Shown in pieces: positions 1,100 to 46,300 of a stretch of DNA of 64,000 nucleotides. The translations under genes and the position numbers were made by a program. The stretch is from Panorpa germanica (lineage: Eukaryota; Arthropoda; Insecta; Mecoptera; Panorpidae), in NCBI GenBank assembly GCA_963678705.1, contig OY783218.1, positions 9,868,152 through 9,932,151 of the forward strand, in the 5' to 3' direction. The notes under the pieces were generated by a model, which saw nothing but the letters and a program-made list of their open reading frames with translations, ran no database searches and had not been told where the DNA came from. The first letter of the stretch is position 1. The number at the start of each line of letters is the position of its first letter.

Positions 1100-8035
<6,936 letters not shown>

Positions 8036-12474: not shown

Positions 12475-14309
12475 GATCTTGTAACAACGGACCTTTGTAA
12501 AGTGTTCTGGGGACACGTAATTACGTGATAGGTGTTAATGACCGCTAATTGTTTGACAAATAATTGTTTTTTCAATGTCAAAAGTGAAAAATATATTCAC
12601 TCTGGTAAAAGTTTTTTATTAATTAGAGATGATTTTTGTTTATTTTTTATTATCTAAGAGATTGTTTGAACTTTTTAGAATATTTATTGGTAATTTAGTT
12701 TATTAGTTAGTTAGCAGAGGTGAATTGGTTTGGGGTACACATACATATCAAGCAAAATTATTTTGTGAAGTGTCACTATGTCAATTCGTTTGCTCAATTC
12801 AATTTGAACTCTTTGCGAATCGTCGAATTGATTGAAGTTGAATTTACTTTGTGATTTACCGGGTACCTTTCACCGTTTAATTTTAGAGGGAACTACATTT
12901 TAACAAAGTTATAAGTTAGCATACTAAGGGCCCACTTTCAATAGTTAGTTAATAAACGACAGTTTTGCTACAGTTATGTTCAAAATCAGCCTAATGTTTA
13001 TCGGCATCGGAGAAAGTTACAAAACAGACACCTACTAATGCAATGGGCTTGTGTCCTCATTTTTTAGTGGTCGATTTTTCAATTGTTGATTGAAATTGAT
13101 GTTAATAAATGTGTATTGGCGTGTCTATTTTATTAAATATCTAAATATTGACGGAGATATAGCAATTAAAAATTTGAATTGTAGTTTTAGCGCTAGAAAT
13201 GGTCGCCCATATTTGTATGACATGAAATGCATTTTTACGTCAGTTATTTGTTGAGTAGGTCAGTGTTGTGGTAATGTTTTGTAGCTGTTGGTACTCAAAC
13301 AATCCAGTCAAGTCAAAGAATAATAAGTTTTTACTTTATTTAACCCTGTTAAGGCAGACATAATATTGAAATTTTATTGTTCCTTGAAATAACTGTAAAT
13401 AATATTTGATATTTTGATATATAAATACATATAGCAGAGATTTATGATCTGTAAGGTTGGTAACCTTACACAAGGATTGTGATGTCACATGCATTTGGAG
13501 TTTGTACAACGTTGAATCCCTTTAATAATTAAAGAGACAAAATGACTTTTTTAATTGTTAATATCTCCTAACATATAAGGAGTTATTAAAAAATAATTGA
13601 ACATTTGAGGTTCTAGTAACCCACTTTATTAATATATAGTACACTTTTATAGAAATTAAGACATAGGACACAAGCCCATTGCAGATGGTTTGCGTCTTCT
13701 CTTTACTTAAAATACGATATTCTTTAAATTTTAATTAATTAAAAATTAGTAAACATATAAAATAACCCACTAACCTTTATATATTATATAAAACCACCAT
13801 GCAACATTTTTATATTATTTTTAAAATTGCAAAAACTTTTACCTAATTCTTTTTCGTAATTTTTTTCTAGATATGCTAATTTAAGCGCAAATATTGCTGC
13901 TATATTTTTTTAAACACTACCTGTCGACGTTGCGTATAATTTGCTTAATTTAATTTGTTTAATTAACATAATATTTATGCTGTACACTTAAAGAGTTGAC
14001 ATTTTAAAATAATGTTTATTTAAAAAATACTTAAAATTTTGTTTGTTTATGTTTTTACTTTTTTATGTTAATAATGTTGTAGTGTAAGACCAAATATTAG
14101 TATGTAAAGAAGCCTATTAATATTTTACGTTCATTTTATGTAATTTGTTTGTAAATACATAAAGGAACATTTTAAATACAAGACAAGTTCTGTCACAGTG
14201 AATGTTTTGTACAGGGAGGTAATTTATCACAAGGTATTATTTATATACAATAAATACGTAATCTTCAGAATGCTTTGAGACTTGTAGGCCATCCTATATT
14301 ACCAGATGC
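12475..14309. other. Intergenic region between divergent genes
   Basis: No gene is supported here. The notable content is the 635-bp TIR element at 13044-13679; the rest is AT-rich unique-looking sequence. The two flanking genes are transcribed away from each other, so upstream control regions of both should lie here. Confidence 0.6.
13044..13679 (+). mobile_element. MITE with GGGCTTGTGTCC terminal inverted repeats (copy 1)
   Basis: About 635 bp, bounded by GGGCTTGTGTCCTCA at the left and GGACACAAGCCCAT at the right, which are inverted repeats of each other. The interior is AT-rich with no ORF of note. It is nearly full-length and closely matches 16297-16929 and, inverted, 57117-57740. Superfamily is unassigned because the target duplication cannot be read clearly: CAAT on the left mirrors ATTG on the right, so it could be part of the terminus. 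Confidence 0.88.
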
Positions 14310-14520: not shown

Positions 14521-17500
14521 ATGAAATTTGCAGAACATCTTAGTGCCCACATCACGCCGGAATGGAGGAAGCAGTACATCAAATACGAGGTCTGTGTTGT
14601 CAATGTGTGTAGGTGTGGGTTTGTTTGTTGTGTTTGTGTATGTGCTGTGTGTTTATAAAATTTAAGAGAAATTTGTTAATTCGTTTTTATGTTATTTGCA
14701 TTCGATGACAATGAAATTGTAAGGCTTTATTGAGACTAGATCATAAAATGACATTTTCAGAATTAACAGAATTCGAAAACTTTTTCTTTGCTTGGTTAAA
14801 GTCATAATCCAGTAAACAATTTGGTGAAGTGTCCTATTTAGTGACGTTTCTATCACTATTTCACTTCAATTATAGTTTGCATCAACTTTATTTTATTTGT
14901 ATTCCGACATGTGGAGTAATTTCGCCATTTGTAGCCGATAAAGTGGGCATTTTATATGAAAGACTGTGAGAAACTGACGCATCTTCAATAAGATGTCAAA
15001 TTTAGGCTGTTTTCACATTGGAACAGATTAATACGATGCCAGATATGAACGACTATTGTCACTATATTCACATTAGCACACTTTATTATGAGTGAAAGTT
15101 TCTAATTTAATGTTTATAAATACACACTGTATTGAAAGAGTTAAAAGTACATATTTTATATATGTCAGTTTTCCTTAGCATTAGCATTTCAATTAACTCT
15201 CATGATAATCTAATAAGCCTTAAAATCTTAGTTTCAAGCTAAATTAATACCTTTCAGATTAAATACAACATAGTACGTTTAGTTAACAACATTTTATCTA
15301 CATTTGAGGTTATAAACACTATTACTTTTTTCTAGTATAATTTGTATATTCCAAATCACGATAGTTCGGCGGCGACTTATACTTAAATGAGGTTATAAGA
15401 GCGGTATAAATCTATAATACGATAATGAATTTTATCTTATTCGTGTCTATATACATTATAGAAAAATAAGTGAGTCAGTGCTATTTAGTTATATCGACAA
15501 TTTATACCCCACAACTTGTTTTAAGTATGAGTCGCCGCCGAACTCTCGTAATTTGAACTATACTACAAGATATTGTTTCCGTGCCTATTTCCTTTAAACA
15601 TTTGATACAGTGCAGTTATTTTGTTCAATTGCAATGCTTTATTGAAAGTGCATGCTTTATTGAAAGTGCATGTATTGGGAGATTAAAAAATGCAAACACC
15701 ATTTTTAAAAGGTAATATTATATAGAAGCTTATTATATTATTTTATTGTATTGTGACATTCTTACTATTTACGAGGTCCAAAGCGTATAGTCCAATCTAC
15801 AACTTCACATTATAAATTGCAAACTTTTGTCGCTTCTTTTTTGTGTGTTAAAAATTCGTTCTCAAGTTTTCTTTCAACTTCATACCGAATATTTGATTTT
15901 TCATTCTTTCGATTTCTTTGTGATAATGAAGTTGAATCATCTATTTCAGGAGATGAAGGCGATGCTCTACAACGCCGTGGAGCAGTCTCCATCTGCGGAG
16001 GTGGTGGATCCTGATATACTTAAACGATATTTTACGAAATTCGACGAACAATTCTTCCACTATTGTTACAAGGAATTAGAAAAGATCAATACGTTTTTTT
16101 CAGGTGCATTTATTTATAAATTCGTAGATATAGCATATGAACATAATATAAAATAAGTGCTCTGAAACATGTTGCACGACACAAAAAACGTTGCTTATGG
16201 GGAAATTTAAATTTTAAATAAAATAGCGCAATATTTTTATATCTCTCTCATTATCCATAATACGATCCCTAATAGTAAAGAAAAGGAAATAGAATAAGCT
16301 TGTGTCCTCATTTTTTAGTGGTCTATTTTTCAATTGTTGATTGAAATTGATGTTAATAAATGTGTATTGGCGTGTCTATTTTATTAAATATCTAAATGTT
16401 GACGGAGATATAGCAATTAAAAGTTTGGATTGTAGTTTTAGCGCTAGAAATGGTCGGCCATATTTGTATGATGTGAAATGCATTTTAACGTCAGTTATTT
16501 GTTGAGTACGTCAGTGCTGTGGTAATGTTTTGCAGCTGTTGGTAGTCAAATAATCAAGTCAAGTCAAAGAATAATAGGTTTCTATTTTATTTAACCCTGC
16601 TAAGGCAGACATAATATTGAAATTTTATTGTTCCTTGAAATAGCTGTAAATAATATTTGATATTTTGATATATAAATACATATAGCAGAGATTTATGTTC
16701 TGTAAGGTTGGTAACCTTACATAAGGATTGTGATGTCACATGCACTTGGAATGTGTACAACGTTGAATCCCTTTGATAATTAAAGAGACAAAATGACTTT
16801 TTTAATTGTTAATATCTCTTAACCTATAAGGAGTTATTAAAAAATAATTGAACATTTGAGGTTCTAGTAACGCACTTTATCAATATATAGTACACTTTGA
16901 TAGAAATTAAGACATAGGACACAAGCCCATTTAATTAATTCGCCACAGAATATGTTGAAGTGTATCTGATACGTAAAAATTACTTTCAAACAAAAGTATC
17001 ATAAATAATTCACATTTACAGAAAAGTTGGCAGAAGCCACAAGAAAATACGCGAATCTGACCAGCGACCTCCGTGAAGCGATTGAAGATGCGAGGGGAGC
17101 TAATGATAACTTCTGGAAATCAAGAAGAAAACTATTACACAAGCAAAATGTACCCCATCGAAAAATTCAAGAACTGAAGCTGGCGTTCAGCGAGTTTTAT
17201 CTAAGTCTAGTTCTTTTACAAAATTATCAAAATCTTAATTTCATGGGATTTAGAAAAATTCTTAAAAAACATGACAAGGTTTGTTTGAAAATTTTTATTT
17301 AATAATTTTTAAAAATTTGAAATTTATTAGACCATTTATATTTCTGTAGTTACTACACGTGGACGCTGGTATGCGATGGCAACAAGAGAAAGTGGAGCTA
17401 TCTCACTTCCACGTCAACAAAGTAAGTGAATTTAGAATGAGAAAGATGCTATAAATGTGTGTTTATATGGACATTACCTCTTCTAACAAAATAAAGCATA

Positions 17501-20268
17501 TTTCACATATTTTCATAAGTTATTAGGATATTTCCAGGTTGATATTAGAAACAGAAGGAGCCGTAACACGAGAATTGGAAGGCGGTGACCGTGCGAAAGC
17601 TATGAAACGTTTGAGAGTTCCGCCGCTAGGGGAGCAACAAAACATCTGGACAACTTTTAAAGTTGGATTCTTTGCTGGAGCTCTAGTTGTCTTGGCCGTA
17701 TCTGTGATTATATCAGGTCTGCAAAATAACTCCACATTTTCTACACTTACACCATAAATATTAATCAGTTTTCATGCAATAGGTATTTTTCACCATGGGC
17801 GAGACGACTGGCGAATTGTTTTTCGTTTATATCGAGGACCATTTCTTCTAATCGAATTCTTATTTCTTTGGGCCATTAATGTTTACGGATGGAGATCTTC
17901 TGGAGTCAATCATGTGCTAATTTTTGAGTTAAATCCAAGAAGTCATCTGTCAGAGCAACATATTATGGAAATTGCTGCAGTTTTTGGAGTTGTCTGGGCC
18001 CTGAGGTATCTAATAAATAAAATATATTACATAGAAAAGTGTATTTTGATTTACTATATACATATTTTTTTATTTATTAATTTATTTTGTGTGTCGTTGA
18101 CTTTACATTCTTTCAATATTACATCTCTTTGCAAACCTAAACTTAAAATTATTCTAACATTTTTAATAATTCCAACAGAAATGTTTGAATTTTATACTCT
18201 TGTTCCTATATTTTCTTGCTCCTTACTCCTCATTGTTTCTCTACCTTTACTATTTCTTCTTGACTCTCTTCCTTTACTATTTTATTATTGTCTCTATCTC
18301 CGTCATCCACCCCTTGTTCTTATCTCCTTTCCGCAAATCCCCTATTTTCTGAACTGAAGTTTAACTGTTTCCTCGCTACTTCTTTCTTTCTCCAGCTTCC
18401 CTTCACTGCCTCTTTTAGTACTTCCTCTCCCTTTATGTTCCCCATGCATACCAGATACGAGATTATTTATTGTCCTGTTTTACTTTCCTCTTTTCTATTT
18501 CCGCCATCCCTTTAATAGCTGCCCAATATTCATCTCGCTCACTACTTTTTCCTGACAATCAAACTTAATGTGCTCCAGTGTTTCAATCTCCGTTCCACAC
18601 ACTCTACACATTATTTTCTCTCTACTTTCCCAGTATCTGTTTCCTTTCTCCTTATTTCCCAATCTAAACCTCGCAATTCTTCTCATGTTTTTTGTGTCTT
18701 TTTCTATTAAGTACTGTGGTATATCTCTCTCCAAAATCCTCTTATATCTTGTGTTGTAATTGCTTTTCTCAATTTTTTCCATTCTTTCCTGTGGCTGTAT
18801 CTCCTTATCCCTTCTCCTTAGCTCCTCTTCCACACTTGCGCCACTTACTATATTAATAATTTTGTTTCAGCGTTCTCTGCTTCCTCTACAGTCCTTCTTT
18901 GGGAGTCCCTGCGTATGCACATCCATTATTTCTCCATGTTTTAATGGTGGCATTTTTAGTAAACCCGTTTAAAGTATTTAGATATGAAGCAAGATTTTGG
19001 GCGCTAAAAGTTCTGGTAAATATTAAAATTCATTACGATTCTTTCTGATGAGTTTTAATTAAATAATGATTTTCAGGGCAGAATTTTCCTTTCACCATTT
19101 TTCTACGTCAGCTTTGCTGATTTTTGGGTAGCTGATCAAATAAATAGTATTGTAACAGTTTTTACAGATTTGCAATATTTATTTTGTTTCTACGCTAGAA
19201 TTGATAACTGGCAAGAAGCTAAAGGTTTGTTTCTTGACTAAATTATCATTTACAAAGTAACCTATTGTTCTTTTAATAATCAAGAAAATGTTTATTGTGT
19301 TTCAGATGCTAGTATTTGTTTTGAGAATTCGTACTTTATCAGACCCATTGTTGCATCCTTGCCTGCTTGGTTTCGCCTTGCGCAATGCTTACGTCGGTAC
19401 AGAGACACCAAAGAAGCGTTTCCACATCTTGCGAATGCTGCTAAATATTCCACAACGTTCTTTGTTTTACTATTTGCAACACTGTATTTAAAATATGCAG
19501 GTAATTTAAACGACAAATAAACTTATGAAAGAAAAGAACTGTAATGTTTCTATTAAACGACTAATTATTGTAATTTGTTACAGAAACAAATAAGAACACA
19601 CTAGAGAACCCTTGGTTTTACGCCTGGATTACAGCATCTGCTATATCATCTTGCTATACATATGCATGGGACATTAAAATGGATTGGGGTTTATTCGACC
19701 CTAAAGCAACTGACTACCCGCTACTTCGAGAAGAAATTGTGTATCCATCGATGGTGAAGAATAAAAATAATCTGTCATACTGCTAATAATGTTTTCTATA
19801 TATATTTTTTCATTTCTTCCAGGGATTCTATTATTTTGCGATTGTCGAGGACTTCCTGCTTAGATTTGCGTGGGTATTATCAATGTCTTTAACTGAGATG
19901 GGGTATATTCATGCTGATCTAATGGTAACCATACTGGCACCAATTGAAGTATTCAGGTAGTGAAGTTATTTACTGTAAAATAATGAAATCAATTATGTAC
20001 TAATAATTGCATATTTTTCAGGCGTTTTATGTGGAATTTTTTCCGATTAGAAAACGAACATTTAAATAATTGTGGTAAATTTCGGGCTGTCAGAGATATT
20101 TCTGTAGCTCCTCTTGAGTCGACAGATCAAATAACTATCTTAAGGATGATGGATCAAGAAGACGGTGTAACAAATAGACATCCTGCACCAAGGAATAATA
20201 ATAAGAAACAGAGACTTCCCCTGAGGGCTCTACTAAATGCTGAATCTACTGATGAACTCGATTCATAA
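14521..20268 (+). CDS. XPR1: XPR1-type phosphate exporter (SPX and EXS domains)
   Basis: Twelve exons: 14521-14589, 15950-16103, 17022-17278, 17350-17421, 17527-17716, 17783-18005, 18871-19015, 19077-19224, 19306-19500, 19584-19753, 19823-19956, 20022-20268. Phases close and give 667 aa, the family's usual size. Residues ~1-185 form the SPX domain: start [15 protein letters not shown], then [20 protein letters not shown] and the basic [10 protein letters not shown] helix that binds inositol pyrophosphates in this family. Several membrane helices follow, then the EXS domain with [42 protein letters not shown] and [11 protein letters not shown]. The tail [14 protein letters not shown] is typical. 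Known role: export of inorganic phosphate, gated by inositol pyrophosphates. The donors after exons 1 and 5 are weak (GTCTGT, GTCTGC). AATAAA lies at 20314-20319. It is complete and looks intact; insects often carry several paralogues, so orthology to a given one is uncertain. Confidence 0.95.
14809..15140 (+). repeat. Interspersed repeat relic in XPR1 intron 1
   Basis: Bases 14809-14970, beginning CCAGTAAACAATTTGGTGAA and including GTGACGTTTCTATCACTATT, have a clear inverted match at 30966-31112. The following part, with CATTAGCACAC and AATGTTTATAAATACA near 15070-15125, matches motifs at 8955-8995 and at both ends of 40382-41060. It is a non-coding dispersed element, class unknown. Confidence 0.6.
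16297..16929 (+). mobile_element. MITE with GGGCTTGTGTCC termini (copy 2) in XPR1 intron 2
   Basis: About 633 bp between exons 2 and 3 of XPR1. It opens GCTTGTGTCCTCATTTTTTA and closes GGACACAAGCCCAT. It is co-linear with 13044-13679 with only scattered substitutions, and the orientation matches the host gene. Non-coding. Confidence 0.88.
18050..18848 (-). mobile_element. LINE 3' fragment in XPR1 intron 6
   Basis: Minus-strand frame 18833-18495 encodes the C-terminal tail of a LINE ORF2: [20 protein letters not shown] followed by [18 protein letters not shown], the C-x2-C-x(8)-H-x(4)-C knuckle seen at the end of many arthropod LINE polyproteins. The 3' region runs to an A-rich, AATAAATTAATAAATA-like tail near 18050-18080. 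It is 5'-truncated and differs in sequence from the fragment in the Abl intron, so a different lineage. It is antisense to the host gene and enlarges that intron to about 865 bp. Confidence 0.72.
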
Positions 20269-21032
20269 ATTATAAATAGTTTTAATAACAATATTTACAA
20301 TTTTTACTGTTGCAATAAATGACCAAAATCTACAATTTGTCATAGCTATATTTAGACCAATTTGTTCCAAACCTTAAAAGTGTTCCAATATATATATTTC
20401 TGATTAAGCACAAGAATGTAGATGAAGTTACTTATTCTAAATTGTCGTATTTTCAATGTTTACCCAGTCTTGTATAAATACTCGTAGATTCAAATAATAA
20501 TTCTCCTGTGTCATTTGTATTTTCATTTTAATAAATTCAATCGTGATGTGTAAGGGTAGAAGTATTGATTTTTATGCAGGCGTCCTTTTCAATAGAAAAG
20601 GTAACAAATACATTGGACTACAGAATGCGTAAACTATTTTCAGTACAGTAATGGGTATTTCTCTTAAGCTCAAATTTGGCATCTAATTACTTTTTAATTA
20701 GTCTGATTGTTATAGACGATGTTAGAAATTAAATGTGCAATATGCCTAGACAAAATAATTATATAAAGAACAGATAGTACAAATAAAATCTGTTTTTGAT
20801 ATGGGTAAAACAAATTACATAATTTTGATTGTTGGAGCTTTGTTATAGAAAATAGAAATAAAAAAAACAAAGAGAGTCTATTGTATGTTGCAGTTTCATA
20901 TATTTATGTTAGTTGATACAAAACAAATTATATTAAGGTTGTTCATGTATATTTACAGCATAAACAGAATATAAATTTAAGTATAAAATTAATTTGTATT
21001 TTTTTTTATTATCTTTTATCTTTATTCACTTC

Positions 21033-24000
21033 TTATGCAGTTCCTAATGGGTTTCCAACCCATGGGTACTTGGCTGGACATGTAACAGCGCATGAGGTCA
21101 TCCAGAGAGGCCACTCAACCTGGAAGTAACATAAACGTTAAGATATTTTGAACATTGAGCATTGTTCTATCAACGACAAGACTTTGTTTTAAATTTGTAG
21201 TAATATTTAAAGACATTTACCCCGTCTCTCAAGAGCTCGCAAGCTTTTTTAGTACAGCTGGGTGTCTTAATTTGGCTACATCCTGAGGTCCAGCTTGATG
21301 AGTCAATTGAGCTCAGAGGAACTGGGTTCCTGACCCATTCGACAACGCGTCCAACAGGAACCTACGAATAAAAATTAATAGATTTATAATTCACATCCTT
21401 TGATTTGTAAATATCTCAGTTTTGCTCACTTACAATATAAACATCAGGTAAACTTTGTAGGTATGTGACAAATTGTTTGTAAGCTTCCAATCTAGCAGCC
21501 TCGGAGAACCAAGCGGAGTGGACGAAGAAGCCAAATGGAGCCTTGTTTCCTTTGTAGTGGCGGTTGAAGTTATCCTTCATGAAGTCGAGGAGTCCTTCTA
21601 CGTCAGCTGGGCTAGAACGTTATAAACTTTATAAGTCATGAAATGTTATAATTATTATTTTTGTCATAAAAGAGTTGCTCACAGTAGTTCATATAAAATT
21701 TCACTGTTATCTACAAATAGTGAAACCATTTCACCTTCTAAAACGAAATTTGCGGGATACTTACATATTGACACATGCATCAACCATGGAGCAGATAATA
21801 TTCTTCTGATCATACCAGTTGATCATAGGAACAACCCATTTTCCTGGGTGACTCTTTGTTGGGCATGGAGGAATGCTACAATCCTGAGGGGATGGCTCAT
21901 CAAGAGTGTAGGGCCACAGACCTGGGTTCATGTAGGTTTGAGTGGGCCAAGAGCAATCGTATTGGAAACCATATTTAGTCTTCATTTCAAATTGATTGTC
22001 TCCAGCCATTTGAAGGAAGGGCATGCGAAGTCCAGTGATGTCTTCTTTTGGAATGTTTGCAAATTTATTTATAAGGTCTCTTTGTCCGTCGAATTCCAAT
22101 GCGAGTTCTTCTACGCTGGCACCAGCCCAATATGGTAAATCAGTTCTGTGGGAAATTGAATGAAGCGCAATCTCGTGGCCGTTAGCCCATAGCTCGTGAA
22201 GCTGGAATGAAGAAAGTTATTTATGATTCATTATAACATTTTTCGAAATTATTGGCCAAATGGCCAGGCGATGTTGCTTACAACTTATATCCTGTGAAGT
22301 TGGTATGCTAGTGCTCTTCCATTGAGCTACACTACTTTCTGAATAGTTAACACTAGACAAGATTATATATATTATTAATTGCTTTTCTGTATAATTCATT
22401 TTGTATTATTGTATTGTATTTATGTGTAATTCGTTCTGTACAAATAATAAATTATTTCATTATGTACTACTACTTAATAGATGGCGCAATCGGTTTAAGT
22501 AACTATATGCTAAATGTTTAAGCCTGAAGAGCAGGCAACTTAAATTACGTTGTTTAAAACCAGTCTTGCAGCTTTGCAAGTTATGGATATTTCTTCTAAA
22601 ATATCATTTCCATATTTTTGATATATTTTTAAAGGGTTATGTCTGGAATACGTTAAATTACTATAAATTCAATAAAATGATAAACTGTTGAATTAAATTA
22701 AAAATATCTACGCTTTTGTGATTTTTATTTAACTTCTTTTAAATTAATGGACTTTTTATCTAAAAGATTAATAATTATATTTTTTAATTTTTTTGATGGG
22801 GTTATGTCCGCTACACGTTTAATTAATGAACTATGCAATTAAATTTAAAATATTTACGCATTTCTAGATTTTATGGAACTTTTTAAAATACATGTTCGCT
22901 AGGCTTTAAATTAAAGAACTGCTTGATTACATTTTAAATATCTTCGCGATTCTGACTTTTATCCGACCTTTTTTAAATTCATGGACTTTTTTTTCTTAAT
23001 TTTTTTTTTTGATTTCTTGAATTTTTTTGATGCAATTATGTTTGCTAGGCTATAAATAAAAGAACTGCTTCATTACATTTTAAATATCTTCGCGATTCTG
23101 ACTTTTATGCGACCTTTATTAAATTCATGGACTTTTTTTTCTTAATTTTTTTTTTGGATTTCTTGAAATTTTTTGATGCAGTTATGTTCGCTAGGCTATA
23201 AATTAAAGAACTGCTTCATTACATTTTAAATATCTCCGCGATTCTGACTTTTATGTGAACTTTTTTAAATTTATGGACTTTCTTTTCTTAATTTTTTTTT
23301 TTTGATTTCTTGAAATTTTTTGATGCAGTTATGTTTGCTAGGCTATAAATTAAAGAACTGCTTCATTACATTTTAAATATCTTCGCGATTCTGACTCTTA
23401 TGCGACCTTTTTTAAATTCATGGACTTTTTTTTTAAATTTTTTTTTTTGGATTTCTTGAATTTTTTTGATGCAATTATGTTTGCTAGGCTTTAAATTAAA
23501 GAACTGCTTCATTACATTTTAAATATCTCCGCGATTCTGACTTTTATGCGACCTTTTTTAAATTCATGGACTTTTTTTTCTTAATTTTTTTTTTGGATTT
23601 CTTGAAATTTTTTGATGCAGTTATGTTCGCTAGGCTATAAATTAAAGAACTGCTTCATTACATTTTAAATATCTTCGCGATTCTGACTTTTATGCGACCT
23701 TTTTTAAATTCATGGACTTTTTTTTCTTAATTTTTTTTTTTTGGATTTCTTGAATTCTTTTGATGCAATTATGTTTGCTAGGCTTTAAATTAAAGAACTG
23801 CTTCATTACATTTTAAATATCTTCGCGATTCTGACTTTTATGCGACCTTTTTTAAATTCATGGACTTTTTTTTCTTAATTTTTTTTTTGGATTTCTTGAA
23901 ATTTTTTGATGCAGTTATGTTCGCTAGGCTATAAATTAAAGAACTGCTTCATTACATTTTAAATATCTCCGCGATTCTGACTTTTATACGACCTTTTTTA

Positions 24001-26310
24001 AATACATGGACTTTTTTTCTAAAATTTTTTTTTGGATTTCTTGATTTGTTTTGATGCAGTTATGTTCGTAATGTTTTAAATTAAAGAACTGCATCATTAG
24101 ATTTTAAATATCTATGCAGAAACTCAAAAAATTGCATTGCTCTTCAAATCATAAAAGTGAACCTTTTCATCATTTTTAACAAGATTATAGTCTTCTTTCA
24201 TTTAGATTTAATATATTGATATATCATAAACTAAAATGCTTATTTAAAAATGAATTATAAATTTGAAATCAGCATTCAAAATTAAGTTAAAATCCGTAAT
24301 AAAATGACATATATATTTTCTTCAATTTTTATGAAAAGTAACAAGAGTATAACCTTCTTACTTTTCATAAAAATTCAAGAAAAATGTATGTCATTTTATA
24401 ACGGGTTTTAACTTAATTTTCAATGCTGATTTCAAATTTATAATTCATTTTTAAATAAGTATTTCAGTTTATGATATATCAATATATTAAATCTCTTTAT
24501 CAGATTAAGCAATGAAAGAAGACTATAATCTTGTTAAAAATGATGAAAAGGTTCACTTTTATGATTTTAAGAGCAATGCAATTTTTTGAGTTCCTGTGTA
24601 GATATTTAAAATCTAATGAAGCAGTTCTTTAATTTAAAACATTACGAACATAACTGCATCAAAACAAATCAAGAAATCAAAAAAAAAAATTAAGAAAAAA
24701 AAGTCCATGAATTTAAAAAAAGTCGCATAAAAGTCAGAATCGCGGAGATATTTAAAATGTAATGAAGCAGTTCTTTAATTTATAGCCTAGCGAACATAAC
24801 TGCATCAAAAAATTTCAAGAAATCCAAAAAAAAAATTAACAAAAAAAAAGTCCATGAATTTAAAAAAGGTCGCATAAAAGTCAGAATCGCGAAGATATTT
24901 AAAATGTAATGAAGCAGTTCTTTAATTTAAAGCCTAGCGAACATAACTGCATCAAAAAATTTCAAAAAATCAAAAAAGAAAAATTAAGAAAAAAAAGTCC
25001 ATAAATTTAAAAAAGTTCGCATAAAAGTCAGAATCGCGGAGATATTTAAAATGTAATGAAGCAGTTCTTTAATTTATAGCCTAGCGAACATAACTGCATC
25101 AAAAAATTTCAAGAAATCCAAAAAAAAAATTAAGAAAAAAAAGTCCATGAATTTAAAAAATGTCGCATAATAGTCAGAATCGCGGAGATATTTAAAATGT
25201 AATGAAGCAGTTCTTTAATTTAAAGCCTAGCGAACATAACTGCATCAAAAAATTTCAAAAAATCCAAAAAAAAAAATTAAGAAAAAAAAGTCCATAAATT
25301 TAAAAAAGTTCGCATAAAAGTCAGAATCGCGGAGATATTTAAAATGTAATGAAGCAGTTCTTTAATTTATAGCCTAGCGAACATAACTGCATCAAAAAAT
25401 TTCAAGAAATCCAAAAAAAAAATTAAGAAAAAAAAGTCCATGAATTTAAAAAAGGTCGCATAAAAGTCAGAATCGCGAAGATATTTAAAATGTAATGAAG
25501 CAGTTCTTTAATTTAAAGCCTAGCAAACATAATTGCATCAAAAAAATTCAAGAAATCCAAAAAAAAAAAATTAAGAAAAAAATGTCCATGAATTTATTAA
25601 AGGTCGTATAAATGTCAGATTATCCTAAATATTTAAAATGTAATGATGCAGTTCTTTATGCTATAGGCTAACCAACATAACTGCATCAAAAAATATCAAA
25701 GAAACCTAAATTTTTTTTTTAGAAAAAATGTCCATGAATTTATAAAAGGTCGCATAAATGCTAGAGTATCGTAGATATCTAAAATGTAATTTCGCAGTTC
25801 TTCATTTTATAGTTTTACGAACATAACTGCTTCAAAATATATCAGAGAAATGTAAATAATATTTTAGAAAATACGTCCATAAAGTCGAAACGTAAAAAAT
25901 TAAATTATATAAATCTATGTGTTATAGTATTAGCGTGAGGATCAGGCGCTTTGAAACGTGTTATTTTTTCTAAAACTGAATTTTATATTAGAAATAAATA
26001 ATTAGATACTCACCAGAGTATAATCAGTGTATTCATGTGAGTTGTAATAGGTTGCAACAACTGGGCAACCATTGTGGTTCTTCTTTCCAGTGAAAATATC
26101 TCTGTAATATTCGATATTGATAACATTAACTGCATCGTCAAAAGTCAATGTAACAAACTGTGGGGTCTCTGCAAGTGATAAACCCCCCGGAGTGTCGGTA
26201 CTGGCACAACGGCAATCCGGAAGAACACAATCTGCAGGACATCCGTCCTTCGCAGAAGGAGCAGCAAGGACCGCAGCAGCGAATAACACGATTAGGACGA
26301 CAGCACGCAT
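21033..26310 (-). CDS. Chitin deacetylase, short group V-like form (copy 1)
   Basis: Five minus-strand exons: 26310-26014, 22201-21765, 21611-21434, 21361-21221 and 21119-21033, giving 379 aa. The signal peptide starts [20 protein letters not shown]. The polysaccharide deacetylase motifs are in order: TFDDAV (residues 56-61), HSISH, RMPF, DCSWP and LWPYTLD. The metal-binding Asp and two His are therefore present and the enzyme looks active. Family reaction: removal of acetyl groups from chitin, outside the cell. There is no chitin-binding or LDL-receptor domain, which matches the short, often gut-expressed insect deacetylases (groups V or similar). Exons 1, 2 and 4 match the neighbour at 28475-30112 exactly in length. 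Intron 1 is 3.8 kb against 256 bp in the neighbour, because it holds a palindromic satellite. AATAAA (reverse) lies near 21020-21026. Confidence 0.94.
22262..22338 (-). repeat. tRNA-like / SINE-head relic
   Basis: On the minus strand, TAGCTCAATGGAAGAGCACT resembles a tRNA D-arm with A box, followed by a tRNA-like stretch GCATACCAACTTCACAGGAT. The expected B box (GGTTCGAATCC) is degenerate (AAGTTGTAAGC) and the arms do not pair into a sound cloverleaf. This is most likely a tRNA-derived SINE fragment or a dead tRNA. Confidence 0.45.
22790..24110 (+). repeat. Left satellite array, ~147-bp units
   Basis: Tandem units with a period of 146-148 bp, marked by a recurrent (C/T)GCTAGGCT(A/T)TAAAT motif at about 22896, 23041, 23187, 23333, 23480, 23626, 23774 and 23920. 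Each unit also has ATTCATGGACTTTTTTT and GCGATTCTGACTTTTATGCG. From 23480 on, units alternate between two subtypes (GCAATTATGTTTGCTAGGCTTT and GCAGTTATGTTCGCTAGGCTA forms), giving a ~294-bp dimer. The outermost unit is the most diverged. Non-coding; it lies in intron 1 of the first chitin deacetylase. Confidence 0.93.
24111..24600. repeat. Palindromic core between the two satellite arrays
   Basis: The core is itself an inverted repeat. For example ATCATAAAAGTGAACCTTTT near 24148 is mirrored near 24540-24565, and AATGAATTATAAATTTGAAA near 24250 is mirrored near 24430-24455. The symmetry centre is near 24345, where short arms AAAAGTAA and TTACTTTT flank a few unpaired bases. A degenerate relative of one arm occurs at about 26800-26965. 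Confidence 0.88.
24601..25870 (-). repeat. Right satellite array, same units inverted
   Basis: The same ~147-bp satellite as 22790-24110 but in reverse orientation. Markers of the form AGCCTAGCGAACATAACTGC occur near 24784, 24930, 25079, 25224, 25372 and 25519. TATAGCC and AAAGCC subtypes alternate, as in the left array. The last two or three units are clearly degenerate, mirroring the decay at the left edge. Confidence 0.93.
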
Positions 26311-26324
26311 TCTGATGGCTGCTG

Positions 26325-26372
26325 AACTGACACTGTAATGCTTGAACCACCGCGATAGTTTCTTATTTATAG
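26325..26372 (-). promoter_or_regulatory. Core promoter of chitin deacetylase copy 1
   Basis: Minus strand: TATA box CTATAAATAA at 26372-26363 and initiator-like TCAGTT at 26330-26325, followed by the ATG at 26310. The spacing is somewhat longer than the usual 25-30 bases, so the exact start is uncertain. The neighbouring paralogue also has a TATAAATA box, close to 60 bases before its ATG. Confidence 0.65.
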
Positions 26373-26639
26373 TGTAGTGTTCTTTCTCTATTTTTGTGAT
26401 ATCATATCAAGAAATAGATATTATTGTGTTTCGTGGAGATTCGTATCGGTCAGTTTAGAAAAACATGTATTTTGATTGGTTTGTTTGTTGTTGAATGACA
26501 AATATCTGAAGGATGGGATTTACACGGATAAAAATGTAACTTACAACATAAGTAGATAACTCACACTAAACACAGTTATCTTTATTTAAGGTTTATGCAA
26601 CATAACAAAACTTACTTGCTATACCATAAAATAATTAAC

Positions 26640-26965
26640 ATTTTTCCCTCCATTTTTTAATGGGGGTTATTTTTATAAACCCTATAAATCAATTTAAAAT
26701 ATCTATGCTTTTAAAATGTCAAAATAAAAATAGTTTTTTTTTTGTTAAAAAAGTATTCATAAAAATCGCAAAAAGTATGGTGTCTTTTTCTTGATTTCTA
26801 ACACAATTTTGAATGCTGATTATAGATTTGCAATTAGTTTTTATGTAAGTGTTTTGGTTAACGAGATATCAGTATATTAAAGTCGAACCGTAACAGATCC
26901 GGAAGAATAGTTTTCAATTCTGAAATCAGCATACATATATTCAAAAACATATATCACATTTAAAA
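26640..26965. repeat. Degenerate relative of the intronic palindrome
   Basis: The stretch 26815-26890, with GAATGCTGATTATAGATTTG and GAGATATCAGTATATTAAAG, is an obvious diverged match to the palindrome core near 24420-24500. The stretch at 26690-26760 (ATCTATGCTTTTAAAATGTC and a poly-T run) resembles an outer satellite unit. It is an older, unexpanded copy of the same element outside the gene. Confidence 0.6.
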
Positions 26966-28474
26966 AATATGAAAGCCAACAATGTATTGTTTATAATTAA
27001 CACATAATACACACCCGTTGCATTGCAATGGGGCATATATCTAGTGTCGATGGTCCATTCTAACGAAATTAAATATTCGTTAATATTTACACAGAAATGA
27101 AATGGGATGGAATATTTTCCTCATCATTAGCAAAATGTTTCAAAGATTTTACTTGGAATATACTTGTACAATGTTATCTACAGAAACTTTGAACGCAGAT
27201 TGTTTTACAGATTACCAAATATTATTTCGTTATTGCCGATATACGAGACAATAATCTTAAAATTATCATTGATTTAATTAAATAAAATTATTTTAAGGAA
27301 TCAACAAATAAAAATTATAGTCATTGTGTGGTGCCAAATACCACGTTTCAATTTTATATCTTAAAAATTATAAAAAGTCATTTTTACGTTAAAAATATAA
27401 AACGATTATGCTGGGAGTCATGGCCCAATTTATCAGCTCTTATTTTTATTGTCTGATTTAAAACCATTTGAAATTTAGGCACTGAGCGTGTGTATACCAA
27501 ATTTTCATGTATATACTTGTTTATCGACTGATGTCTTGGTAAAAACTATCAAGCAAACACAGCACTAGCAGGCTTGTAAGACAAATGTCACATTAATACA
27601 CACGGAGACCTGCACAGAATGGGAAAGGGGCGCTCCAGCCCCCAAAAGTAGGAAATATGACTGGATGCAATAGATTTATTTCGCGTTAAGCCTTTTCTTA
27701 AAGCGAAAGCAATTGTGACTCCAAAAATATGAAATGGGCCTACTGTGGAAGGTAATTGTGATTGCGTACAATGTAATGTTTATGAAAAAGTACATTTCAA
27801 AGGCATCAAACGCATTGAATTTATTGAATGAAACGTAGATGAGAAAAGAAGCAAGAAAGAAGACATAGGACAGCTAGGAGTCTACAGTGAAGACAACTAG
27901 GAGTCGTTGAATACGTTTCGCGAAAACCGTAGCAGTCGTTGAATACGACTCCCTTCTCGCCCAACGTAACAATACGTTAAGACAGTGAATAAGGAACTTT
28001 TCGAATGATACCGTAAAAAATAATTGTTTGCTACAACATTACTTTCTTGAGGTGATAGAAAGAGTTTCATTATTAAATTCTACGAGAGCAGGAACAAGTA
28101 AAGACTATTTCAATTAAAAATTGTAATTTATTGAAACCATTTAATTATTGGAGAATTAAAAGTTACGGTACTTTGAAAAGAATTTAATAAGGAAAACGGT
28201 ACTTTGAAAATATACTGACGAAAATTTCAAGAGTAGTTAAAATTAATTTTCTACTCAATTAGCTCGATATTATAATTATCTACTATTTGTAACTTAAATT
28301 CCTCACATTTTTTGATATAAAAATATGACTTTACTAGTAATACTAGGTAATAAATAATTAAATTAAAATAATAAAAAAAAAATAACATTTTATATTAAAA
28401 TCAGTTTATTAGTTATTTATAATTAAATCAGTTTATATTTTTCGTTCAGTTCTCATAATGAAATATTTAAATAT
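26966..28474. other. Intergenic spacer between the two deacetylases
   Basis: No gene found. A GC-richer island near 27600-27980 contains a short inverted repeat, with GGAGTCGTTGAATACG at about 27899 and GTCGTTGAATACGACTCC near 27934-27952. The right end should carry the 3' UTR of the second deacetylase, with AATAAA (reverse) near 28405-28411. Confidence 0.55.
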
Positions 28475-30112
28475 TTATATTTTCTCTCCAGTTGGATTTC
28501 CAACCCATGGGTAGACAGCGGGGCAGGCAGCAACGCAAGATGTCATCCAGCGGGACCATTCTTCCTGTAAACAGATAATTTACAAATATTAACTTAAACC
28601 CCACAACATTTTTCAAGAGATGGCTATGCAATATCAAGAAATACACTTACGTCAATTTTGTTTAATTCGCAGGATCGTGGTGTGCAGTATTCCTCTTCAA
28701 TTTCACGGGTCTCTTCTGTCCAGTCAGAATTTTGAATGGAGCTCAGAGGAATTGGGTTTCTTACCCATTCGATAACTCTTTCAACGCCAACCTAGGAAAA
28801 TACGCCGAGTTAGACAAAATACTACTCCTAAGTTTTGTTTTAAGGTTAAAGTTGTTGAGGTCTTACCAGGTAGACATCAGGAAGGGTCTGGAGGTAGTCA
28901 ATGAATTTAACGTAAGCCTGGAAGTGAACCAAGGGGGCAACATTGAACCAAGCAGCGTGTACGAAGTAGCCGAAGGGGGCTTTGTTTCCAAGATATTGAC
29001 GGTTGAAGTTTTGCTTCATGAATTCGACGAGTCCATCGATATCCTTGGGGCTAAGCGAATAATTCAATGTTAAACAACGTTGGAATTTGGTAGGTCAATA
29101 TTTTTGATATTCAGGTACTTACATATCAACGCATGCATCCATCATAGCGCAGACAACATCATTGTTATCCTTCCAGTTGATCATGGGAGCGACCCATTTT
29201 CCTGGGTGGCTCTTTGCTGGGCAAGGAGGGATGCTGCAATCCTGAGGAGATGGATGGTCGAGGGTGTAGGGCCATAGACCTGGGTCCATGTAGGTTTGGG
29301 TTGGCCAGGAGCAGTCGTAGAGAAAGTCGTCATCAGTTAACATGTCGAATTGCGTGTCACCCGCCATTTGAAGGAAAGGCATACGGATTCCGGTGATATC
29401 TGCCTGTGGAATTCTAGCGAATTTGGCGATCAGGGATCTCTGCCCAGCGAATTCTTGGGAGAGGAGGGCTTGGCTGGCCGTTGACCAATACTCAACATCG
29501 GTTGTGTGGGAAATGGAGTGAAGGGCGATTTCCTGGGCGTTGACGTAGAGTTCGTGGAGCTGGAAACATTTACAATTCAATTTGTGTTTCTATTACGTTC
29601 TATTATCCATTACGTTGACGCATGCTTTATCAGATGATAACAAAACTTTTGGTAATTAAATCTAATAACATCGAACCGTGCTGGAAAATATGTCACTTGA
29701 CAATTTCTCCAGATGCTACGCCATTACTTCGAAGATATACTTTATTATTATTACTTTCGATTGACGAGATTTTTAAAAATGAATTATAAAATAATTATCA
29801 AAGATATTCTCTTACCAGGGTGTAGTCGGTGTATTCGTGGGAATTGAAGAAGGTGGCAGAAACTGGACGTCCATTAGGGTTCGTTCTGCCGTAGAGGGCG
29901 TCTCTGTAGAATTGGATGTTGCTGATGGTCACAGCATCATCGAAAGTCAGCATTACAAACTGTGGAGTTTGGTCAGGTGCCAAACCTCCAGGAATATCGA
30001 CTCCAGCACATCTGCAGTCTGGAAGAACGCAGTCTTCAGGACATCCATCTCTTGCAGATGGTGCAGCGAAGACAGCGGCGACGAACAGTGCAATTAGAAC
30101 AACGGTACGCAT
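28475..30112 (-). CDS. Chitin deacetylase, short group V-like form (copy 2)
   Basis: Five minus-strand exons: 30112-29816, 29559-29123, 29050-28867, 28791-28651 and 28564-28475, giving 382 aa. The start gives a signal peptide [20 protein letters not shown]. Catalytic motifs: TFDDAV (56-61), HSISH (113-117), RMPF (158-161), DCSWP (181-185) and LWPYTLD (194-200), all intact. It is a secreted, chitin- or chitooligomer-deacetylating enzyme by family. There is no accessory chitin-binding domain. Exons 1, 2 and 4 have the same lengths as in copy 1, and exons 3 and 5 differ by 6 and 3 bases, so the pair arose by tandem duplication. Introns are short (72-330 bp), unlike the 3.8-kb intron 1 of copy 1. 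Confidence 0.95.
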
Positions 30113-30164
30113 ATTTGTTGTTACAGATCTGCTAATTCAATTAATTGCTCTTGTTCGAGTTCTG

Positions 30165-30176
30165 TGTTATTTATAC
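30165..30176 (-). promoter_or_regulatory. TATA box of chitin deacetylase copy 2
   Basis: Minus strand reads GTATAAATAAC about 55-65 bases before the ATG at 30112. This leaves a short 5' UTR. The box matches the one found before the paralogue. Confidence 0.7.
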
Positions 30177-30965
30177 TGGTTTTTTATCTTTTATTTTATG
30201 ATAGCTTATCAAAAAATCAAAATTTAGGACAACGCAATGAGAGATAATGGACACTGTTGACTAAATTGTTTTTAAGAACGCGTGCAAGAAGATTGTAAAT
30301 TGAGACAAGAGTACAAATAAACTGAAACAGGTTTGTGGATATGACCATAGTCATTCACAAGACCACTTATTATTTTTCTTCTTTTAAAATTGCTTTTTGT
30401 AAAAAAAAAAAATAGTTATAGTTTCGAAAATGTTCATTCTTCTGATACTACGGATACAGGTGGGAATTTTCCTTAGAAAAAAAGAGGCCTATCATATTCA
30501 GGGGCACTTATGTGCGGTGCACAATAAGCACACAAGCACGACCTGGACCTAGGCATTCGCCCAAACTTTGATAGAAGAGTACAACACTCAGATTCCATTC
30601 TATCCGTTGCAAATTTAAAACAGAATTCTTTTCACCGGGCCCTGTGGCGATTCTGGACGCCCCTGAGTGTTACAATTTTTGTGTTCTTTTGAACAAGGAG
30701 TAGTACCTTCTTCAATGATTTTTAAAAAGAAACAATTACTGCAATAATTGCAAATAAAAAGGAGCGCTTTCTTTGTTATATTTGTAAACAAAAAGGAGGC
30801 AAGCAAATGCAAAATTGTAAATCGCATACCAAAATTCTTATGCGGAAATTCGCCTACACCATTTTTCTAAAGACAAGTTTTTTGAAGAAAAGGTTTTGAA
30901 GTCACTTTGCCATCATATAGAGATGCGTATGTTTTTTTTTTTAGCAAAGAATTAATTTACAATTT

Positions 30966-43300: not shown

Positions 43301-46300
43301 TTTTTAAAAATGGATTGGACATTTGAAGTCCTGGTAGCTAGGTTATCAATATTTTGCACAGTTTTATAGAAATTAAGACATGGTTCAAAAGCCTATTGAA
43401 AATTAGAATATGGTGAAAGAACTATTGCATGAAGAGAGGAAGAGAAGACTACCTAACGTCCATTGCATTTCATTAACAGATCTATATTGCAGCACAAAAT
43501 ATAGCAGGGGGCATCCATTATCAGGCCAAACATGGAGCCTCAACACCACTGAAGTAGAATTTGGTGAAAGAAATGCTCCTGGAGAAGGCACACCAGGTGC
43601 TTGACCTTGTGTCCTCACTAACAACGTCGGAGACGCTGGGGATGTTCCAATTTTATTATGCACCGTTAAATACAAGTGGTAAGTGCTTCCACATTGAAGA
43701 CCCTATAGAAAATAAATATATTTTAAATAAATATATATTTTTTGTTACTGATTTCTTTTTTAATTGGTTCCTACCTTTAATTCGTGACTTGACGCGTGAC
43801 GCGACATGGCCATTTCCTCTAAATTCCCATGTGTCTTCATATAATGTAATGTGAACCCACTTAAAGGAGCCATTCCTGTAGCACCAGGCTTCCAATGCAA
43901 TAGAATACTGCTTGATGTAGCACTGGTCACATATAACACAGGCGGACCAGGGGGAACTTGAACTATCAAGTTATACGTTAATCTATCCGTTCCAATTCCA
44001 TTATCAACCTGTAAAATATAAACCACAAAGTAGAATATTGACACAATGATTTTATAAAACAATTTATTTAATTACTGACTTGGCAAGTGTAATTTCCAGA
44101 ATCAGATTGCTGTAGTCCAGAGAGTAACAATTCTCCAGAATCTAAAAGTTGCATATTGTGATTTGCACCAGCTCTTATGGGAGCTTCTGAACGTAACCAT
44201 TCCCTACGGGGTTGACCAACAGCGTGGCATGATAGAGCTACAGAACTTCTCCAAGATTTAACGACAGGTCCTCCAAAGGATGTAATTCGTGCTGACACTA
44301 AAATCAATAAAATATATAATTACTATAATCAGAATTGATTAATGGAGTTTTTATTAAATATAGACTGTATGAACCTCGGCTTGACGCTATCTGCTGCGCC
44401 ACCCTTGAACTACGACCTTCGCCAACTCTTGTTGATGCTGTAACCCAGAATTGATATTCTACATGCTGTTGAAGCCCCTTTGCTTCGAAAGTTGTGTGTC
44501 CCGATGGAAGATTTCTTTTATTATGATTTAGCTCTTCTCTTCCATCGACAACTCTATTAGAATATTAAAAATTATTAAATACATAAAGCATAATTTTACT
44601 GTTTAATTCATGTTCAATAATAAATAAAATGTACCTTGTATAAAGTATATATTTAGTAATTATTCCATTAGGTTCACTAGGGGGCAGCCAAGAAACAAAC
44701 AGAGACTGTGGGGAACTAACCACTACTTTAATATCAGCAGGAGCTTCAGGAACTAAAAATAAAGAAACAAATTAATACGTTTTCCCCTATTCTGATATAG
44801 TTTATCTTGAGCATGGGTGTTACAGATAAAGAATTAAAAATACATGTATAAAATTGACTGTATTTTAATAACAGGGCATGTACAGATATGTTTTATCATT
44901 TTATTCAATTTATATATAATGTCCAGCACTGTAACATTATGTATTTTAGTAACGTATCAGTCAAATTCAATTCTTTACTACAGTTATGTTTTTAAATATT
45001 ATTATAAATACTAAATATAAATTTTAAAATTATGTAGATACTGTGACAGTATTGTAAAATAGTTGCAAAACAAATCACAATATAATGTAGAATTGTTCTC
45101 ACCATCTTCTTCAGTCTGACAAAAAGCAGTCTGCGTTAAAACACCATCGCCCATCCTTGTGAAGGCCAACACCTGCATGCTATAATTTGTGTATTTTCTT
45201 AAGCCTGTCAGGACTGTAGTTAAGGCTGATGTCTTTCTTGTTTCCATTTCGTCATTTGCTGCAAATTTAAATTAAATTAAAGATATTGAAATATTAAATT
45301 TAAATTAAAAGATATTAAATGGCTTTACCTTTAACATAATCATTTAAAACAGGTTCATAAATCAGTTTATATCCTTGAAGAACACCATTACAATGTGATG
45401 ATGGAGGAGGTTGCCAGGATATTTGCAAAGATTGTGATGTAAGAGCAGCACATCTTACATCTTCAGGAGGCATACTAGGAACTGAAAGTAATAATTTTAA
45501 AATTATTTATGAAAATTATATCATTACTAGCTTTTACCCCCGTCGCAAGCGACGTTTGTTTTTTGTGAGTGGCTTGAATTTCAAGTCAAAATTTAATTTT
45601 TAAATTGAAATAATAAATAAACTCGTCCTATATTGATTTAAAATTTAATAACAATTAATTTTTCATACAAACTGACTAAGAAAATACATTTTTTATATCA
45701 AAATAAAAAATATTTTGAATTTATGCGATATTTGAACAACTTTTTTTCAAAATTTAGGATTTTCTTTTCGATTCGTAAATAAGTTGCCAAGGTTAGCCTA
45801 TATACAAAATTTCAACTTTCTAGCACAATTTTTACTCTCGGCAAATACTGCCCCCGTGCCCCCCAATAAAATTTTGAAATTTTGAATTTTTTTTTTTTTA
45901 ATAATATACTTAATTATTCTAGAATCCAGAAAATGAATTTTCTCCAAAGTTCCCTACCGGGCCCCCGAATTTCTTTAACCCCCCCTTTTTCAATTTTTGA
46001 ATTTCTAATTTTTGAGAAATGTCAGCATTGAATACTTTAATACACATGCAAAATTTCAACTTTCTATCTTCTACGAATTAAAAGTAATACAGCAAAGAAG
46101 GGATCACTTTTTTCCAGTTTTTCCAAAATTACGGGTTTCCAGGAAATTCAGGGAAAAATCCGGGGACGCCAAAAGTCTTAGAATTTTTTTCTCTACGAAA
46201 TAGGAAATTTTTAAAAACTTCCCTGGAGCCGTTTTCGAGATGCCATACAAAATTCGAACCAAACATATAAACACATAAACATATAAGAATATAAATATAC

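What the first reader, a model, noticed from the sequence alone, without database searches (positions are those of the whole stretch)
22790..25870. A ~3.1-kb palindrome of facing satellite arrays inside a chitin deacetylase intron
Two arrays of ~147-bp units face each other around a core that is itself an inverted repeat. The whole lies in intron 1 of a gene that must be transcribed through it. The nascent RNA could fold into a duplex with arms of over 1.3 kb, a natural substrate for Dicer-2 (hairpin siRNAs) or ADAR. The tandem-paralogue gene lacks it, giving a built-in control. The sequence shows the structure; the RNA role is inference.
Basis: partly seen in the sequence, partly recalled or inferred. 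Interest (0 to 1): 0.8.

Follow-up and report, generated by a model that had tools for sequence, protein, structure and literature searches.

The report
Mobile satellite palindrome in a scorpionfly intron
The 3-kb palindrome in this gene is real, but it is one copy of a family of mobile, hairpin-shaped satellite repeats scattered through the genome of a scorpionfly, so it is probably an inserted passenger and not a device built for this gene.

Summary
Window 22892-25824 is an inverted repeat (91% to itself): eight 146-147-bp units, a palindromic core with a 16-nt centre, and eight units facing back. It lies in the 3,812-bp intron 1 of a chitin deacetylase gene; that intron is 256 bp in the tandem paralogue. 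The modelled transcript folds far better than shuffles.

The feature is not specific to this gene. The genome matches Panorpa germanica. The same facing-array cassette recurs on many chromosomes: 26 of 26 cassette loci read show it, and 40 of 40 scored cores (of 1,012 candidates) are palindromes. In 19 of 20 copies both core halves are closer to a half in another copy than to each other, so the palindrome is copied as such. Six loci carry both ends of a canonical Helitron. The window copy has other ends and no Helitron termini; how it moved is open.

Most likely it is an inserted, foldback-like mobile satellite. A dsRNA role is possible but untested. Known kind, unusual variant.

The parts
22440..25969 (.). 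Whole copy of the dispersed repeat (about 3.5 kb), judged by where genome-wide similarity stops on each side; probably end-truncated compared with some other copies
22440..22555 (+). Left end domain (contains the hairpin-like GCCTGAAGAGCAGGC), shared with other dispersed copies
22672..22891 (+). Degenerate outermost units of the left array (72-73% to the unit)
   Evidence: L001 positions 1383 and 1516
22892..24113 (+). Left array, 8 units of 146-147 bp, all pointing to the core
24114..24599 (.). Core, itself an inverted repeat with a 16-nt asymmetric centre near 24345
24600..25851 (-). Right array, 8 units in reverse orientation, all pointing to the core
25904..25964 (+). Right end domain, shared with other dispersed copies
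22202..26013 (-). Intron 1 (3,812 bp) of the chitin deacetylase gene that holds the element; GT...AG
26014..26310 (-). Exon 1 coding part of the host gene (99 aa from ATG)
21761..22201 (-). Exon 2 region of the host gene (end not modelled exactly), matches chitin deacetylases of known structure

Best explanation
The palindrome is a copy of a dispersed, non-coding mobile repeat of what matches Panorpa germanica, whose body is two facing satellite arrays around a palindromic core (a foldback-like cassette). It was inserted into intron 1 of one of two tandem chitin deacetylase genes. SHOWN: the structure; the dispersal; the same facing arrangement in every cassette locus that I read; arm lengths that vary unit by unit; core halves that are closer to halves of other copies than to each other (so the palindrome is copied whole); and complete canonical Helitron ends around the cassette at six loci. 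INFERRED: rolling-circle (Helitron) transposition spread at least that subset; unequal exchange, slippage or conversion between arms changes unit number and homogenises units; the window copy got into the intron by insertion and is normally spliced out with it; any dsRNA made from it is a by-product.
For: Genome search with the element: 246 matches from only 35 of 1,550 first-look candidates scored. Core search: 40 of 1,012 candidates scored, and 40 of 40 match on both strands (recounted). Cassette loci read: 20 from the whole-element search, 1 from the right-end search, 5 from the core search; 26 of 26 have forward units, core, reverse units. 393 of 393 units in the first 20 loci point to the core (units that were shorter or too degenerate for the length filter were dropped). 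In 19 of 20 copies both core halves are closer to a half in another copy than to each other (the best of 38 others is taken, which favours this outcome somewhat); own halves form a clade in 1 of 20, in a tree with 8 of 36 inner branches well supported. The window's halves are 93.8% alike but 98.8% and 95.9% like those of L025. Nearest neighbours of units: 210 same arm, 54.7 opposite arm, 128.3 another copy; in the window copy 6, 9 and 1. Helitron ends: L009, L010, L015, L020, L054 and L057 have a TC start and a hairpin-plus-CTAG end. Helitron_like_N (PF14214): 150 of 893 candidates scored, all 150 over the cut-off. Window-type end domains flank the arrays also in L026 and L027, and both domains pair up, same orientation, within 1.2-3.6 kb at nine further loci. 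The paralogue intron is 256 bp.
Against: The window copy has no Helitron termini and I saw no target-site duplication, so its own way of moving is not shown; its left end looks truncated. The A expected before the 5' TC was present in 3 of 7 starts inspected (L015, L020, L054; not in L009, L010, L026, L057; the L026 start belongs to a neighbouring Helitron, not to the cassette). One weak 3' end (L014) lacks CTRR. Three Helitron Rep loci that I fetched share no end sequence with the cassette carriers, so the helper is unidentified. No empty site from another individual or species was available.
Confidence: 0.87

Rival explanations
1. Hairpin-RNA locus: the intron is transcribed, folds into a kilobase duplex, and Dicer-2 makes siRNAs (or ADAR edits it), acting on the gene or in trans on the repeat family.
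For: Strong predicted duplex on the transcribed strand; plausible gene with intact splice signals. Long hairpin RNAs feeding the siRNA pathway are known in insects (recalled).
Against: No RNA data here. The same structure exists at many loci, so selection for this gene is not needed. No Rfam family matches in 20500-30500. The fold follows from the DNA symmetry and says nothing about processing.
Confidence: 0.2
2. Classical foldback (Foldback/Tetris-type) cut-and-paste element: long inverted arms made of tandem units, moved by a transposase with 8-10-bp target duplications; the Helitron ends of some copies are hitch-hiking.
For: Anatomy is that of Tetris: tandem units inside long inverted arms with varying copy number. 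Window-type copies have end domains that recur with the cassette. L051 has the right end domain on both sides, inverted.
Against: No target duplication seen; left and right end domains of the window type are not inverted copies of each other; six copies end at Helitron termini instead.
Confidence: 0.3
3. Satellite that seeds inverted duplications: the arrays themselves promote template switching, making palindromes in place, and the mobile ends are secondary.
For: At L051 the palindrome runs on beyond the end domains, by about 0.96 kb on the right and 1.19 kb on the left (which holds an extra 225 bp), at about 99% identity; the outer break lies about 23 bp from another unit of the same satellite. 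At L012 symmetry runs about 525 bp beyond the arrays at 97.5% (not followed up).
Against: In the other 19 of 20 loci mirrored similarity beyond the outer filtered units is absent or ends within about 310 bp, part of it degenerate units; one short hit in L024 is far from mirrored. Core halves are closer to other copies than to each other in 19 of 20, so palindromes are not made afresh.
Confidence: 0.1
4. Assembly artefact.
For: Palindromes can arise from chimeric reads.
Against: PacBio chromosome-scale assembly with reported QV 59.9 (PMC11464959, passages); the window's arms differ by about 6% over ungapped columns, unlike a read that turns back on itself, and many copies lie in distinct flanks with unequal arms. 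Raw reads were not seen.
Confidence: 0.02

Closest known systems
Tetris, a foldback element of Drosophila virilis (PMC4079207; abstract and two sections read)
   Same: Long inverted arms built of about 220-bp tandem units, variable unit number, non-coding middle, seeds satellite arrays
   Different: Tetris has 8-10-bp target duplications and shared outer inverted domains; here the core is itself a palindrome, the unit is 146-147 bp, no target duplication was seen, and several copies have Helitron ends. No sequence comparison with Tetris was made
Cg_HINE and DINE-1-like Helentron elements with central satellite-like repeats (PMC7492417 abstract and one section; PMC4067079 passages)
   Same: Non-autonomous rolling-circle elements that spread satellite-like arrays
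   Different: As described in what I read, a central array between subterminal repeats; here two arrays face each other, and the carrier ends are canonical Helitron (TC...CTAG). A review mentions Helitron/Helentron arrays in differing directions in oyster (PMC12628747, passages)
TCAST transposon-like elements of Tribolium castaneum (PMC3411249, passages)
   Same: Satellite monomers in inverted arms of a hairpin-forming, non-autonomous element, near genes and in introns
   Different: At most 1,181 bp with about one monomer or less per arm and a 3-bp target duplication in some; here up to 24 units per arm
Macro-dyad satellite arrays of Tribolium madens (PMC13081366, passages)
   Same: Satellite arrays facing each other around conserved inversion sites
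   Different: Those are major satellites of (peri)centromeric megabase regions; here short dispersed copies, one in an intron. That paper says such symmetries were documented only in Tribolium

Membership tests
Helitron (non-autonomous), window copy | 5' TC and 3' hairpin plus CTRR ends | tested here: not met
   No match to the carrier ends at the edges of the window copy; other Helitron families' ends were not searched for
Helitron (non-autonomous), carrier copies L009, L010, L015, L020, L054, L057 | 5' TC, 3' CTRR, hairpin about 11 nt before the 3' end | tested here: met
   TC start and CTAG end in 6 of 6; the hairpin stem ends 12 nt before the 3' end in the one end that was folded, and by eye in the rest; defining features from PMC4067079. 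The 5' base was set from where carrier copies stop matching each other
Helitron (non-autonomous), all 3' ends near arrays | CTRR followed by T | tested here: met
   12 of 13: CTAG then T in 11, CTAA then T in L016, not in L014. The probe ended in CTAGT, which favours such ends
Helitron (non-autonomous), carrier copies | Insertion between A and T without target duplication | tested here: inconclusive
   T after the 3' end as above; A before TC in 3 of 7 starts; the L010 start abuts another Helitron-like CTAG end
Helitron (non-autonomous), carrier copies | An autonomous partner with the same ends | tested here: inconclusive
   PF14214 is abundant, but 0 of 3 Rep loci fetched share the ends; only 3 were looked at, with 1.3-4 kb of flank
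Foldback/Tetris-type element | Long inverted arms made of tandem repeats around a middle domain | tested here: met
   26 of 26 cassette loci read
Foldback/Tetris-type element | Inverted outer end domains and 8-10-bp target duplication | tested here: inconclusive
   No duplication seen by eye at the window copy or in nine end pairs, but the exact ends are not settled; inverted end domains in L051
Helentron / HINE | Subterminal inverted repeats, 3' palindrome, insertion in TT | tested here: inconclusive
   Both window-type end domains contain short hairpin-like motifs, but no shared subterminal repeat was established
Hairpin-RNA (endo-siRNA) locus | Phased 21-22-nt reads from both arms, Dicer-2 dependent | not testable with these tools
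   Only the fold was computed

The most novel reading that the evidence does not exclude
Scorpionfly Helitrons carry kilobase, facing satellite palindromes. Their single-stranded transposition intermediate would be self-complementary over 1-3 kb, so the palindrome may be tolerated or even used during rolling-circle copying. The same cassettes, dispersed and sometimes intronic, would form a genome-wide set of natural long hairpin RNAs, and can seed inverted duplication of host DNA (as at L051).
Probability: 0.25. Interest if true: 0.7.

Novelty: new variant of a known kind. Interest (0 to 1): 0.45.

Why it matters
Kilobase palindromes with tiny spacers are usually unstable (recalled), yet this genome keeps many of them, with arms of 3 to 24 units. 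If rolling-circle elements really spread them, they test how a self-complementary strand is copied and joined. It also extends facing satellite arrays beyond the beetle genus Tribolium, to dispersed copies of which at least one lies in an intron. For the gene, the tandem paralogue without the insert remains a useful natural comparison for any effect of an intronic dsRNA.

Tried and rejected
Assembly artefact: rejected (divergent, unequal copies in distinct flanks), without raw reads. In-place formation of each palindrome: rejected for the family by the core-half comparison, though L051 shows an inverted duplication of flanking DNA and L012 may show another. A window-copy target duplication: looked for by eye at both ends and in nine end pairs, none seen. 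Filing the window copy as a Helitron: not done, because its ends failed the test. Rfam search of 20500-30500: no match. Pfam on exons one by one: no match; the PDB sequence search settled the enzyme family. Partner Helitron: 3 Rep loci, no shared ends. A first count of symmetry beyond the arrays had wrong array limits for L012 and was redone. A search with three array units alone did not complete and was dropped. Literature: searches; in the Panorpa/satellite/Helitron search none of the 20 listed papers of 202 contains the word Panorpa, so I found no printed description of this repeat in that listing.
Full report
OBSERVATION. The window holds two arrays of 146-147-bp units, 22892-24113 and 24600-25851, which are reverse complements of each other. 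A minus-strand self-search aligns 22892-25824 with itself at 91.2% identity. A global alignment of 22790-24345 with the reverse complement of 24346-25870 gives 93.7% identity over ungapped columns (117 of 1,599 columns gapped). The core is itself palindromic; its centre has a 16-nt asymmetric spacer between TATGAAAAGTAA and its reverse complement (read from the sequence). Chance is not an issue for arms of this length.

HOST GENE. On the minus strand, exon 1 codes 99 aa from 26310 to 26014, intron 1 runs 26013-22202 with GT and AG, and exon 2 starts at 22201. Exon 2 matches chitin deacetylases with solved structures (5z34, E 4.9e-50; 5zns, 3.4e-27). The tandem paralogue has the same splice positions, 69 of 99 and 106 of 147 alignment columns identical in the two exons (the second count includes the stop column), and an intron 1 of 256 bp. 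The gene models are mine and rest on no RNA data.

ORGANISM. The genome is 464,208,970 bases in 249 contigs. The lengths of the 12 large contigs that I saw (C1-C4, C9, C13-C17 without C10-C12, C20 and C21) agree with Table 2 of the Panorpa germanica genome note, for example 30.64, 29.11, 15.3 (the window's) and 47.99 Mb (PMC11464959, passages read).

A DISPERSED FAMILY. The whole-element search scored 35 of 1,550 first-look candidates and returned 246 matches on many contigs. The core search scored 40 of 1,012 candidates; 40 of 40 places match on both strands (recounted). I read 26 cassette loci: 20 chosen from the best whole-element matches (L001, L009-L027), L051 from the right-end search, and 5 from the core search (L054-L058). 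All 26 have forward units, palindromic core, reverse units. The first 20 hold 393 units that pass a length filter, and all 393 point to the core. Arms hold 5 to 23 such units, 24 under a looser filter, and 3 full units in the left arm of L057; the two arms are often unequal. Because the loci were picked by similarity, this does not show how common degraded or one-armed copies are. The candidate counts come from a loose first look and are not copy numbers.

HOW THE PALINDROME IS INHERITED. If each palindrome arose in place, the two core halves of a copy should be each other's closest relatives. In 19 of 20 copies both halves are closer to a half in another copy; the exception is L011. Taking the best of 38 others favours this outcome, and the tree is weakly resolved (8 of 36 inner branches well supported, own halves a clade in 1 of 20). 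The window's halves are 93.8% alike, but 98.8% and 95.9% like those of L025, a copy about 0.4 Mb away on the same chromosome. The palindrome was therefore copied as such. Within arrays, units are locally homogenised: nearest neighbours are 210 in the same arm, 54.7 in the opposite arm and 128.3 in another copy, ties shared. In the window copy 9 of 16 are in the opposite arm, so the arms have exchanged sequence or grew before they were doubled.

WHAT CARRIES IT. L009, L010, L013, L015 and L020 share a longer element at roughly 92-96% identity. Its 3' end is a hairpin whose stem ends 12 nt before the end, closing in CTAG, and T follows; its 5' end starts with TC. These are canonical Helitron features as given in PMC4067079 (passages). 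Both ends are present in L009, L010, L015, L020, L054 and L057. Matches to the 3' end lie near the arrays in 11 of the first 20 loci, two of them weak (L014 80%, L016 83%). Of 13 such ends inspected, 11 have CTAG then T, L016 has CTAA then T, and L014 has neither; the probe itself ended in CTAGT. A genome search with the 3' end scored 40 of 231 candidates, and all 40 matches reach the last base of the query. Against this: A precedes TC in only 3 of 7 starts, and three Helitron Rep loci with long reading frames show none of these ends. PF14214 itself is abundant: 150 of 893 candidates scored, all over the cut-off.

THE WINDOW COPY. Similarity to other copies begins at about 22440 (no other match listed begins left of query base 222, window 22437). 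On the right, 29 of 42 other matches stop at or before query base 140, window 25969, and 13 run further, to 26008 at most. Its end domains differ from the Helitron ends. The same pair flanks arrays in L026 and L027 and occurs together in one orientation at nine more loci, 1.2 to 3.6 kb apart (what lies between was not read). Some other copies extend further left, so this copy is probably truncated. I saw no target duplication. The window copy thus belongs to the cassette family but fails the Helitron end test.

SYMMETRY BEYOND THE ARRAYS. In 19 of the first 20 loci mirrored similarity beyond the filtered units is absent or ends within about 310 bp; in L012 it runs about 525 bp at 97.5% (which replaces). 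In L051 it runs about 0.96 kb on the right and 1.19 kb on the left, at about 99%, beyond the end domains. A 336-bp part of that flank matched only its two places at this locus among the rows listed (40 of 915 candidates scored, not all matches listed). So inverted duplication of flanking DNA happens, but it does not explain the family.

RNA. The minus-strand 2,933 nt fold to -1897 kcal/mol, 93% paired, 1,366 of 1,370 pairs crossing the centre, with 20 uninterrupted helices of at least 21 bp; five dinucleotide shuffles gave -524 to -546. This supports only the statement that a transcript could form a long duplex.

VERDICT. A foldback-like mobile satellite, a subset of which travels in Helitrons, inserted in an intron. 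The RNA role is a fair hypothesis but not needed. The anatomy joins known pieces (Tetris, PMC4079207; Cg_HINE, PMC7492417; TCAST elements, PMC3411249; macro-dyad satellites, PMC13081366) in a way that I did not find described in the listings and passages that I saw; a 2025 review mentions Helitron-borne arrays in differing orientations in oyster (PMC12628747, passages). Hence a new variant of a known kind. On checking, confidence in the best explanation was lowered from 0.88 to 0.87 because of L012 and L014.

Noticed in passing
L051-L053 (G000:C20:2413664-2418640): A copy whose palindrome continues about 1 kb into flanking DNA at about 99% identity; 336 bp of that flank matched only this locus, once in each orientation, among the rows listed. 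The outer break lies about 23 bp from another unit of the same satellite: a likely recent inverted duplication.
   Followed up: partly
L012 about 1667-2192 and 6714-7241: Mirrored flanks of about 525 bp at 97.5% outside the arrays: either a longer end domain or another inverted duplication.
   Followed up: no
window 13042-13680, 16298-16931 and 57117-57742; L026 about 6273-6911: A repeat of about 640 bp, present three times in the window at 93-99.5% identity to a copy beside the cassette L026 on another chromosome; its ends look like inverted GGGCTTGTGTCC (by eye), so perhaps a young small DNA element.
   Followed up: no
window 46242-46320 and 47041-47114, minus strand: Two diverged matches (80% and 75%) to the 5' end of the Helitron carriers, so the window may hold other Helitron relics.
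   Followed up: no
window 26721-26881: Imperfect inverted repeat, 72-74% like the cassette core, upstream of the same gene; could be a relic or chance.
   Followed up: no
L019, L021, L055, L056: Core regions with an extra, partly duplicated core copy about 196 bp away, giving nested palindromes.
   Followed up: no
window 18495-18866, minus strand: Open frame that looks like the cysteine-rich tail of a non-LTR retrotransposon reverse transcriptase (recalled, not searched).
   Followed up: no
L010 position 1363: A carrier Helitron starts directly at the CTAG end of another Helitron-like sequence, a head-to-tail junction.
   Followed up: no
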